Assembly: GCF_006538365.1 (NCBI RefSeq)
Contig: NZ_BJKN01000002.1
Coordinates: 269,276 to 333,275 of the forward strand
DNA length: 64,000 bases
Direction of reading: 5' to 3'
Origin: Moorella sp. E308F
GTDB taxonomy: Bacteria; Bacillota; DSM-521; Neomoorellales; Neomoorellaceae
Both the position numbers and the translations under genes were made by a program. This document shows positions 1,693-13,151 of the stretch, in pieces; position 1 is the first letter of the stretch, and each line of letters opens with the position of its first letter. The notes beneath the pieces were generated by a model that saw only the letters and a program-made list of their open reading frames with translations, was not told the DNA's origin and did no database searches.

Positions 1693-1733
1693 CGCCCCCT
1701 CCGACGAACAATGAAAATGCACTTTTGGCAAAG

Positions 1734-1974
1734 GGGGTGGAGGGTACAGGTGGAAGGCGACTTGGTTCGAGGCGTAAGCAAACTCAGCGAAGACGCAGCG
1801 AGGCGGCGGTTAACGGGATGGGGATCGTAACGCAGCTTTAGGAACGAGAAGTACCACGCCCCGTTATGATTGATCAAAGAGATAAAGCCACGCCACCCCC
1901 GCCGCCGAGCAAGGCTGAGCGCTAAGTTTGCTAGCCGAGAACCACCGGAGCCTGAAGCCTGTACCCTCCACCCC
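1734..1974 (+). ncRNA. Structured noncoding element A upstream of recA (same family as 12082-12336)
   Basis: The 359 bases between thpR and recA lack a credible gene but fold strongly. P1: 1734-1750 pairs perfectly with 1958-1974 (17 bp). P2: AGGC 1755-1758 with GCCT 1950-1953. P3: GGTTC-GA-GGC at 1764-1773 with GCC-GA-GAACC at 1934-1943, leaving tandem G-A pairs. A GTA bulge (1774-1776) follows. P4: 1777-1789 with 1920-1932 (12 of 13 pairs). P5: GGCGGCGG 1802-1809 with CCGCCGCC 1899-1906. Inner hairpin: TAACGGG 1811-1817 with CCCGTTA 1860-1866. The P1/P2 loop (TGGA opposite GAAG), the CCGGA before the P2 3' strand, and CGAGCAA at 1906-1912 recur in the second element. Transcribed strand and identity are inferred; HEARO-like RNA is one possibility. 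Confidence 0.72.
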
Positions 1975-8088: not shown

Positions 8089-8099
8089 ATAATTAACTT

Positions 8100-8265
8100 A
8101 ATAGGGAACAGGTGCCTGAAAGGTTAAAAGGGAATCAGGTGTAAATCCTGAGCGGTCGCGCCACTGTAACCGGGGAGCCTGCTTCAAGGCCACTGGTATT
8201 ATACCGGGAAGGCGAAGCCAGGCAAGGAGCCGGAGCCAGGAAACCTGCCTGTTCATTTCACCCTC
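8100..8265 (+). promoter_or_regulatory. Cobalamin riboswitch
   Basis: This adenosylcobalamin-binding leader shows the hallmark elements in order: the GGTGCCTG region near 8111, an AATCAGGTG / AATCCTGAG helix, the GCGCCACTGTAA core near 8158, a GAAGGCGAAGCCAGG arm, and the B12 box GAGCCAGGAAACCTGCC near 8234-8250. It precedes the whole cobalamin gene set, so it is expected to switch the operon off when B12 is plentiful. Confidence 0.95.
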
Positions 8266-8295
8266 GCGTTAAGGGGCCTAAAGTTAGGTGATGTG

Positions 8296-11320: not shown

Positions 11321-12031
11321 GTGGTGAGTGGAACCCTCTATGGCCTGGGGGTTGGACCGGGAGACCCGGACCTGTTAACCCTGAAGGCTAAAGCCATTTT
11401 AGAACAGGTACCGGTCCTGGCGGTACCGGTTTCCCAGCGTGGCGAGGAAAGCCTGGCCCTGCAGGTGGTCCGGCCTTTTCTCCGGCCTGAGCAGAAGATA
11501 CTAAATCTTTTCATGCCTATGACCCATGACCTGGCTTACCTGGAACGTTCCTGGGATGCAGCGGCGGCAGAACTTTTGAAAAACCTTTCAGCAGGCCAGG
11601 ATATCGCCTTCCTGACTCTGGGGGATGCTTCCCTTTACAGCACCTATAGCTACTTAATGCAACGCTTGCAAAAACTCAACCCGGATTTAAAGATTGTTAC
11701 CGTTCCCGGGATCACTTCCTTTGCTGCGGCTGCTGCCAGTTTGAATGTTCCCCTGGCGGTAGGGGACGAACCTCTGGCCATCATCCCGGCCCTCAAGGAC
11801 CCGGCTAACTTAAAGGAATACCTCTCCCTTTTTCCCAATCTCGTCTTAATGAAAGTCGCCCGCCATTATGACGCCATCGTTACCGTGCTGGAAGAGGCGG
11901 GCGTGGCCGGGCAGTCGTTCCTGGCCAGCCGCTGCGGCCAGGCCGGGGAGAGCTTCAGCCGGGACCTGGTAGCCGAAAAGGGTAAGAAACAGGATTATTT
12001 GTCATTAATTATAGTCAAAGGCACCCCATGA
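11321..12031 (+). CDS. cbiL: Cobalt-precorrin-2 C20-methyltransferase CbiL
   Basis: A 236-residue tetrapyrrole methylase. GVGPGDPDLLTLKA is the SAM loop; LTLGDASLYSTYSY and VPGITSFAAAAA are diagnostic of the C-20 methyltransferases. It acts directly after cobalt insertion. GTG 11321 follows AGGAGG. Its TGA stop at 12029-12031 is immediately followed by the noncoding region holding structured element B, the only large gap in the operon. Confidence 0.95.
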   Translation: MVSGTLYGLGVGPGDPDLLTLKAKAILEQVPVLAVPVSQRGEESLALQVVRPFLRPEQKILNLFMPMTHDLAYLERSWDAAAAELLKNLSAGQDIAFLTLGDASLYSTYSYLMQRLQKLNPDLKIVTVPGITSFAAAAASLNVPLAVGDEPLAIIPALKDPANLKEYLSLFPNLVLMKVARHYDAIVTVLEEAGVAGQSFLASRCGQAGESFSRDLVAEKGKKQDYLSLIIVKGTP

Positions 12032-12081
12032 AGGGTGATTGTTAGCAGACAGGAGATAGAAAAGCTTCGGCGGCGATTATA

Positions 12082-12336
12082 GGTGGGGATATGTCCCGGA
12101 GCCGCGAATAGTGGAGCGCCGGTAACAGGACAGGCGAGGTGAGGTAACCGTTGCCGCCGCCGAGGACGCCTGAGCGTGCCCTGGCGAGGAATACAGAGTG
12201 ACCTCATAGAAGGATTCAGGCCAGCGGAGCAGGAAGCCTTTTCATTGGCAATCCGCAGGCGGCGAGCAACGGTCCGAACCGAGCCGTAGTCCTGTCGGCG
12301 CGTAACTCCTGAGCGGCGAAGGGACATATCCCCACT
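12082..12336 (+). ncRNA. Structured noncoding element B between cbiL and cbiF (same family as 1734-1974)
   Basis: A 355-base break in an otherwise tightly packed operon holds a highly folded element. P1: GTGGGGATATGTCCC (12083-12097) pairs perfectly with 12321-12335. P2: GCCGC 12101-12105 with GCGGC 12313-12317, the P1/P2 loop being GGA opposite GAA. P3: GCGCCG 12116-12121 with CGGCGC 12296-12301. A GTA bulge (12122-12124) follows, then P4: ACAGGAC 12125-12131 with GTCCTGT 12289-12295. P5: 12147-12161 with 12258-12273, 15 bp with one bulged A, containing CGAGCAA. CCTGA precedes the P2 3' strand, as CCGGA does in element A. The shared architecture points to one RNA family. Function unknown. 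Confidence 0.75.
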
Positions 12337-12386
12337 AGAAGGCACCATTTTTAGCAGAACGTTATTTTTGGAGGAGCAGAGCAGGC

Positions 12387-13151
12387 ATGAAGGTTTATTT
12401 TGTCGGGGCCGGGCCGGGAGACCCGGAGCTGATTACCGTCAAGGGGCGCCGCCTTTTAGAGGAAGCCGGGGTCATTATCTATGCCGGCTCCCTGGTGAAC
12501 CCGGAAATTTTAAAGTATGCGCCGCCGGGAGCCAAGCTGTATAACAGCGCTTCCCTCACCCTGGAAGAAGTCCTGGCCATCATGCAGGAGGCGGTAGCCA
12601 GGGGCGAAAAGGTGGTCCGCCTGCATACGGGCGATCCTTCCCTGTACGGGGCCATCCAGGAGCAGATGGACGCCCTGGAGGGTCTGGGTATACCTTATGA
12701 GATCGTGCCCGGCGTCAGCTCCTTTGCAGCGGCGGCAGCAGCCGTCAGGAGGGAATTTACCCTGCCGGGAATAAGCCAGACGGTGATCCTCACCCGGCGG
12801 GCCGGCCGCACCCCGGTGCCCGCCGGGGAAAGTCTGCCCGATTTAAGCCGCCACCGCGCCAGCCTGTGCCTTTTCCTCAGCAGCCAGGACCTGGCGGCGG
12901 CAGCGGCCGAGCTGGCCCGTGGATATGGGGAAAATACCCCGGCGGCAGTAGTCTACAAGGCCTCCTGGCCGGAAGAAAAGATTATCCATGGTACGCTGGG
13001 GGATATTGCCGCTAGAAGCAGGGAGGCGGGCATTGACCGGACGGCCCTGCTCCTGGTCGGCGATTTCCTGGCCGGCAGCTACCAGCGCTCCTTACTGTAC
13101 AACCCGGCCTTCAGCCACGGCTACCGCGAGGCTAAGACACCCCATGACTGA
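12387..13151 (+). CDS. cbiF: Cobalt-precorrin-4 C11-methyltransferase CbiF
   Basis: A 254-residue tetrapyrrole methylase with GAGPGDPELITVKG at the N-terminus, YAGSLVNPE, the HTGDPSLYGA loop and the VPGVSSF motif, the signature set of C-11 methyltransferases (CbiF/CobM). ATG 12387 follows GGAGGAG. Its end overlaps cbiG by 8 bases. It is the first gene after the structured RNA element, so it may depend on read-through of, or a start point within, that element. Confidence 0.95.
   Translation: MKVYFVGAGPGDPELITVKGRRLLEEAGVIIYAGSLVNPEILKYAPPGAKLYNSASLTLEEVLAIMQEAVARGEKVVRLHTGDPSLYGAIQEQMDALEGLGIPYEIVPGVSSFAAAAAAVRREFTLPGISQTVILTRRAGRTPVPAGESLPDLSRHRASLCLFLSSQDLAAAAAELARGYGENTPAAVVYKASWPEEKIIHGTLGDIAARSREAGIDRTALLLVGDFLAGSYQRSLLYNPAFSHGYREAKTPHD

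What the first reader, a model, noticed from the sequence alone, without database searches (positions are those of the whole stretch)
12018..12358. Second copy of the RNA family splits the cobalamin operon and is flanked by direct repeats
Seen: the only large gap in a 20-gene operon with overlapping genes holds the element (P1 12083-12097 with 12321-12335, plus P2-P5). AAGGCACC occurs at 12018-12025 and again at 12339-12346, and TTAGCAGA at 12042-12049 and again at 12351-12358, in the same order on both sides. This looks like duplicated flanks from an insertion or a recombination event right after the cbiL stop (ATGA at 12028-12031). From memory, HEARO elements are reported to follow ATGA or GTGA; this needs checking. 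In its place the element could also lower or uncouple expression of cbiF onward, separating cobU-cbiDETL from the rest.
Basis: partly seen in the sequence, partly recalled or inferred. Interest (0 to 1): 0.75.

Follow-up and report, generated by a model that had tools for sequence, protein, structure and literature searches.

The report
Mobile RNA-like insert before cbiF
A 255-base hairpin-closed element, one of dozens of related copies in this bacterial genus, has inserted at the ribosome-binding site of a vitamin B12 gene; it carries no protein gene, folds like a complex RNA, and brings its own replacement ribosome-binding site.

Summary
The element is real and is an insertion, but not the kind proposed. 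Four congeners have an empty cbiL-cbiF junction with closely packed or overlapping genes. The flanking "direct repeats" are not target duplications: the upstream AAGGCACC is coding tail of cbiL, the downstream copies lie inside the element's own right-hand module, and the upstream ATGA and TTAGCAGA are missing in the nearest relative, whose element is 99% identical. HEARO is excluded (no Rfam match, no ATGA rule). The element ("A") is about 256 nt, closed by a covarying P1 stem, with about 40 full copies in the genus; inner helices covary and favour G-U over A-C, as in a transcribed RNA. A second family ("B", upstream of recA in this window) has about 40 scored copies in one species. A and B often share end modules; empty sites at rseP and purH show that such units insert at Shine-Dalgarno sequences (AGGAG) and leave AGGAG at both ends. 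A nine-copy IS110-family element in one congener has nearly the same left end and target, so IS110-type mobilisation is likely but unproven. Here the insert uncoupled cbiL from cbiF and supplied cbiF's present Shine-Dalgarno sequence.

The parts
8093..8266 (+). Cobalamin riboswitch at the head of the operon (context)
   Evidence: Rfam RF00174, 119 bits
11321..12031 (+). cbiL; its last codons (V-K-G-T-P-stop) contain the upstream AAGGCACC
   Evidence: TIGR01467 E 1.7e-71; C-termini of relatives compared
12032..12061 (+). Left spacer GGTGATTGTTAGCAGACAGGAGATAGAAAA, shared in diverged form with G001, G003, G007 and G008; in G007 a different unit starts right after its AAAAGGAG
   Evidence: junctions of relatives
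12062..12081 (+). Stub AAGCTTCGGCGGCGATTAT(A), probable 5' remnant of a type B element fused to A; the same fusion occurs at other loci
   Evidence: flanks of L002, L057, L062, L064 and L103
12082..12336 (+). Element A, closed by stem P1 (12083-12097 with 12321-12335), conserved inner domain 12098-12320
   Evidence: fold z -8.8; 38-copy alignment with covariation; genus-wide copies
12337..12376 (+). Right-end module AGAAGGCACCATTTTTAGCAGAACGTTATTTTTGGAGGAG; holds both downstream 'repeats' and ends in the Shine-Dalgarno sequence GGAGGAG (12370-12376), 10 nt before the cbiF ATG
   Evidence: recurs at other loci; coordinates
12387..13151 (+). cbiF, the gene whose ribosome-binding site was replaced
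   Evidence: TIGR01465 E 2.1e-99
1733..1974 (+).

Best explanation
The 12062-12376 segment is a copy of a non-autonomous mobile unit of this genus. The unit has no protein gene. It consists of a left-end module (lost or decayed here), a large P1-closed structured RNA-like domain (type A here), and a right-end module that ends in GGAGGAG. Units of this kind insert at the Shine-Dalgarno sequence of a gene; the right end then serves as the new Shine-Dalgarno sequence, so the downstream gene keeps a ribosome-binding site. SHOWN by comparison: it is an insertion at the cbi junction; it is multicopy; P1 and inner helices covary; filled and empty sites of such units at rseP and purH place the break inside AGGAG; one IS110-family element has almost the same left end and the same target. 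INFERRED: the mover is an IS110-type DEDD recombinase acting in trans; the A domain is transcribed and needed for mobility or survival of the unit, rather than for cobalamin regulation. In this operon the insert separated the formerly abutting cbiL and cbiF and gave cbiF an independent strong Shine-Dalgarno sequence. My probabilities: insertion of a multicopy mobile unit 0.95; Shine-Dalgarno targeting of the unit class 0.85; the same rule at the cbi site 0.7; IS110-type mobilisation 0.5.
For: Empty junctions in G005, G006, G009 and G010, filled or partly filled in G000, G001, G003 and G008. About 40 full copies of A in the genus, 3 in this genome, up to about 22 in G001, none in related genera apart from one weak hit. 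Covariation: 17 pairs with double changes against 9.7 expected, covariation score 0.195 against 0.110, 0 of 500 shuffles as high; slid structures pair in 34-42% of cells against 96.7%. Strand sign in the inner helices: G-U 111 cells against A-C 24. Target: rseP empty GCAAAGGAG/TTGAGG in G003 and G007, filled ACAAGAGGAG[unit..TATTTTTGGAGGAG]TTGAGG in G001; purH empty TTTGAAGGAG/GCGAGC in G008, filled in G007, short form in G000, G001 and G003. The IS110 element of G001: 9 copies, each bounded by GAGGAG with most right ends a few bases before a gene start; protein hits PF01548 and PF02371. Its left end matches unit left ends far above background, for 9 of 9 units tested (at most 0.03% of random windows as good).
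Against: At the cbi site itself the left-end module is not recognisable, so the exact left boundary is inferred. Several A copies lack clear end modules and some sit antisense to the neighbouring genes. No IS110 with these ends was found in this genome or in G005, G009 and G010, where B is most abundant. P1 shows no strand preference (G-U 11, A-C 11), so P1 may be kept as a DNA palindrome rather than as RNA. No transcript data.
Confidence: 0.7

Rival explanations
1. Cis-regulatory leader of cbiF onward (riboswitch-like or attenuator) kept for cobalamin control.
For: Element lies in the 5' region of cbiF, is strongly folded, and in G001 is 99.2% identical while the left flank is 94.2% and cbiF 93% identical.
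Against: The same RNA sits before unrelated genes (rseP, purH, cheY, glmU, ribH and others), also antisense. Four congeners have no element and two keep only a hairpin at this locus. Across other orthologous pairs the element evolves about as fast as its flanks. No promoter or terminator match.
Confidence: 0.1
2. HEARO / OMEGA (IscB) RNA element inserted after ATGA.
For: Structured RNA of similar size following an ATGA in this genome.
Against: No Rfam RF02033 match at E up to 10; the family search finds HEARO only once in the genus, in G010, and not here. ATGA is absent beside the 99% identical copy in G001 and copies at other loci do not follow ATGA or GTGA.
Confidence: 0.01
3. A classical DNA palindrome / MITE with long terminal inverted repeats, with no RNA function: the P1 arms are the repeats and their joint changes come from hairpin-mediated template switching.
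For: P1 arms covary without strand bias (G-U 11, A-C 11). Short hairpin-only forms look like slippage between TCCC repeats of the two arms (G003 and G008 at the cbi site). Orientation flips at orthologous loci.
Against: Inner helices covary and show strong G-U over A-C bias, and many internal loop positions are invariant in 38 copies, which a plain palindrome does not need.
Confidence: 0.15
4. The repeats at both flanks are relics of two successive insertions: the upstream AAGGCACC..TTAGCAGA..GGAG is the decayed right end of an older unit, and the present unit inserted at that unit's Shine-Dalgarno sequence.
For: Same order of motifs on both sides. The G001 IS110 inserted in exactly this way behind the right module at this locus and at a second one. 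The G007 spacer reads GATTTTTAACAG..AAAAGGAG followed by a new unit.
Against: Similarity is only at the 1-4% level of random windows and AAGG is explained by cbiL codons present also in empty species.
Confidence: 0.25

Closest known systems
Small non-autonomous intergenic repeats of bacteria: BOX of Streptococcus pneumoniae, ERIC, RUP, Correia elements (from general knowledge, not tested here)
   Same: Short, non-coding, dispersed, intergenic, modular with exchangeable middle parts, fold when transcribed, sit between a stop codon and the next gene.
   Different: Middle domain is a larger RNA-like fold (58 predicted pairs, many invariant loop bases); insertion is at the Shine-Dalgarno sequence and restores it.
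IS110-family insertion sequences with bridge RNA (PMC11208160)
   Same: IS110 in G001 has nearly the same left end, the same GAGGAG target and reconstitutes a Shine-Dalgarno sequence at its right end.
   Different: Units carry no recombinase gene; their RNA domain is not recognisably a bridge RNA: model A finds no IS110 non-coding end.
HEARO / IscB omega RNA (RF02033)
   Same: Mobile, structured RNA of similar length.
   Different: No covariance match, no ATGA/GTGA rule, no associated protein.
IStron / group I intron elements and IS200/IS605 derivatives (general knowledge)
   Same: Non-coding RNA inside a mobile element.
   Different: No group I intron or other Rfam hit; elements lie between genes, not inside reading frames.

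Membership tests
HEARO (RF02033) | Matches the Rfam covariance model | tested here: not met
   No match at E up to 10; none in this genome
HEARO (RF02033) | Inserted directly after ATGA or GTGA | tested here: not met
   ATGA absent at the orthologous copy in G001 and not found as a rule at other copies
HEARO (RF02033) | Linked IscB/HNH reading frame | tested here: not met
   cbiL and cbiF flank it; the antisense frame over the element (11995-12348) has no Pfam match
Non-autonomous intergenic insertion unit (MITE-like) | Multicopy, dispersed, no transposase gene | tested here: met
Non-autonomous intergenic insertion unit (MITE-like) | Empty sites in relatives | tested here: met
   cbi junction; rseP, purH
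Non-autonomous intergenic insertion unit (MITE-like) | Ends shared with an autonomous element | tested here: inconclusive
   Strong for intact units against the G001 IS110 left end; not for the decayed left end at the cbi site
IS110-type mobilised unit | Same target and end rule as an IS110 element | tested here: met
   GAGGAG at both ends of 9 IS copies and AGGAG at unit ends
IS110-type mobilised unit | Mobilised by an IS110 recombinase | not testable with these tools
   Needs a transposition assay
Structured RNA | Compensatory changes in helices beyond controls | tested here: met
   inner-helix strand bias
Structured RNA | Transcribed and processed | not testable with these tools
   No RNA-seq
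Bridge RNA | Homologous to IS110 non-coding ends, with target and donor loops | tested here: inconclusive
   Model A does not hit IS110 loci; model B gives only one weak antisense hit in L219; only a short GGCTGAGC motif is shared with the G001 left end

The most novel reading that the evidence does not exclude
A, B and a third type seen in G007 are a new class of mobility RNAs: each folds around a P1 stem and works in trans with an IS110-type recombinase, directing units without a protein gene into Shine-Dalgarno sequences, where the unit's own end re-creates the ribosome-binding site and so makes insertion nearly harmless.
Probability: 0.15. Interest if true: 0.9.

Novelty: new variant of a known kind. 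Interest (0 to 1): 0.62.

Why it matters
Most insertion in compact operons is harmful. A unit that targets the ribosome-binding site and carries a replacement at its end offers a simple way to spread inside operons, and could explain how one genus holds dozens of large structured non-coding inserts between co-transcribed genes. The conserved RNA-like domain has no Rfam relative, so it is a candidate new RNA class with a testable link to IS110 recombinases. For this operon it shows how the tight cbiL-cbiF junction was lost in one clade.

Tried and rejected
Rfam at gathering and permissive thresholds on both elements: nothing relevant. HEARO searched genus-wide: one unrelated locus. Target-duplication reading of the AAGGCACC/TTAGCAGA repeats: rejected from relatives and chance estimates. 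The 14-nt match CATGAAGGGTGATT/CATGAAGGTTTATT was first read as a relic of the old cbiF start; dropped because relatives lack the ATG there. Left end at the cbi site as a diverged copy of the left module: not supported. Antisense ORF over the element: no family. A as a bridge RNA: the A model does not find IS110 ends. A and B as one family: weak support in one direction only. A first pass of flank identities used free gaps and was unusable; redone. Literature searches found no description of this repeat or of Shine-Dalgarno-targeting IS110 elements; the library holds only open-licence papers.

Full report
What was checked. Every base string named in the finding is present at the stated coordinates. 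The 12060-12345 stretch folds at -146.1 kcal/mol, z = -8.8 against dinucleotide shuffles. Neighbours are cbiL (11321-12031) and cbiF (12387-13151), behind a cobU-type kinase, cbiD, cbiE and cbiT and a cobalamin riboswitch. The sequence carries no sigma-70-like promoter or terminator match. Genomes of the held set bear handles only; G000 is the window's own genome and G001-G010 are ten other species of the same genus. I did not verify the genus name.

A dispersed family. BLAST of the element finds 3 long copies in G000, many in G001 (26 matches in all), 11 in G002 and 12 in G007. A covariance model built from 38 copies finds about 40 full-length copies in the genus and nothing convincing in 11 other genomes of the class (one weak hit, 23 bits, in G021). 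Copies are closed by a P1 stem of 15-16 pairs. Hairpin-only remnants also occur.

RNA-like or DNA palindrome. On the 38-copy alignment the consensus structure has 58 pairs; 17 show double compensatory changes against 9.7 in shuffles, and the covariation score is 0.195 against 0.110, with no shuffle of 500 as high; structures slid by 1-3 columns pair in 34-42% of cells against 96.7%. Eleven of the 17 double-change pairs lie in P1, six in inner helices. In the inner helices G-U cells outnumber A-C cells 111 to 24, which fits an RNA made from the + strand; in P1 they are equal, 11 to 11. The cells are not independent events, because copies are related. My reading is that the inner domain is constrained as RNA, while P1 may also be kept at the DNA level.

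The junction in relatives. G005, G006, G009 and G010 have no element; cbiL runs into cbiF with the ATG, or a GTG, within or next to the end of cbiL. G000 and G001 have the full element, 99.2% identical. G003 and G008 have the same flanks but only GGTGGGGATATGTCCCCACC, which is what slippage between the TCCC of the two P1 arms would leave. G007 has a third kind of insert behind the same spacer. G002 has only TTATTTTCGGAGGAG. By cbiF identity, all species at 85% or more carry an insert or remnant and all at 79% or less are empty. One gain in that clade, followed by decay and replacement, explains this. G004 (84% complete) gave no cbiF match.

Why the repeats are not target duplications. The upstream AAGGCACC is the end of cbiL; its AAGG is kept in empty species as codons, and the whole string is present in G007, which has another insert. 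The upstream ATGA exists only in G000: G001, G003 and G007 read through to a later stop. The upstream TTAGCAGA is TTAACAGA in G001 and G003. The downstream copies lie in a module, AGAAGGCACCATTTTTAGCAGAAC..GGAGGAG, that follows the element at many other loci. Upstream/downstream similarity is reached by about 1% of random windows ungapped. The upstream strings could be the worn right end of an older unit; I give that 0.25.

What the units target. Many A and B copies lie between a left module (GAGGAGCCCCTCATGGGGGCTGACGCCCCC..GAACCATGAAAAT) and the right module. Empty sites fix the break: rseP is GCAAAGGAG/TTGAGG when empty (G003, G007) and ACAAGAGGAG[unit]TATTTTTGGAGGAG/TTGAGG when occupied by a short-form unit (G001); purH is TTTGAAGGAG/GCGAGC when empty (G008), with full (G007) and short (G000, G001, G003) units between the same bases. 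So the units go into the Shine-Dalgarno sequence and leave AGGAG on both sides. At the cbi site the right end, GGAGGAG at 12370-12376, fits this rule. The left end is decayed: 12062-12081 is a stub of a B element fused to A, a fusion also seen at other loci, and no left module is detectable.

A possible mover. In G001 an IS110-family element (PF01548, PF02371) is present in nine identical copies, each bounded by GAGGAG and most followed within a few bases by a gene start. Its first 44 bases match the left end of nine of nine tested units better than at least 99.9% of random windows. Two of its copies sit directly behind an A unit, one of them in the cbi operon. IS110 elements are known to choose targets with a bridge RNA (PMC11208160). 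Against a simple link: other IS110 elements of the genus, including the one in G000, do not have such ends, and B is most abundant in genomes without it.

Effect in this operon. Inferred from sequence: the abutting cbiL-cbiF junction is replaced by about 355 nt, the C-terminus of CbiL changed from VKGGGQP-like to VKGTP, and cbiF received GGAGGAG 10 nt before its ATG. Whether expression changed is unknown.

Comparison with what is known. By behaviour it is closest to BOX/ERIC/RUP-type intergenic repeats (general knowledge) and to IS110 elements by ends and target. It is not HEARO. The RNA-like domain is not in Rfam 15. Hence: a new variant of a known kind, with an RNA family not described in the sources I could search.

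Noticed in passing
   Followed up: partly
L082 (G007), cbiL-cbiF junction: A third type of structured unit (C, about 290 nt) with AGGAG at both ends and no clear sequence relation to A or B.
   Followed up: partly
L219-L233 (G001): IS110-family element in nine identical copies, all inserted at GAGGAG; an IS that appears to target Shine-Dalgarno sequences.
   Followed up: partly
L072 vs L103/L058; L003/L066 vs L067; L073 vs L107; L089 vs L105; L104 vs L101/L106: At five orthologous intergenic sites element A is in opposite orientation in different species. For L072/L103 the flanks are 98-99% identical and the element 96%, which suggests inversion in place rather than two insertions.
   Followed up: partly
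L103 and L058, flanks of A: A is nested inside a B element (B 5' part, then A, then B 3' part), so the RNA domains are exchangeable modules.
   Followed up: partly
L285 (G010:C7:63501-63797): The only HEARO (RF02033) found in the genus, 97 bits.
   Followed up: no
A1 and A2 alignments, before CTGAGCG: Both A and B copies alternate between CCGAG- and CTTAA-type versions of the same loop, a swap shared by two otherwise different families.
   Followed up: no
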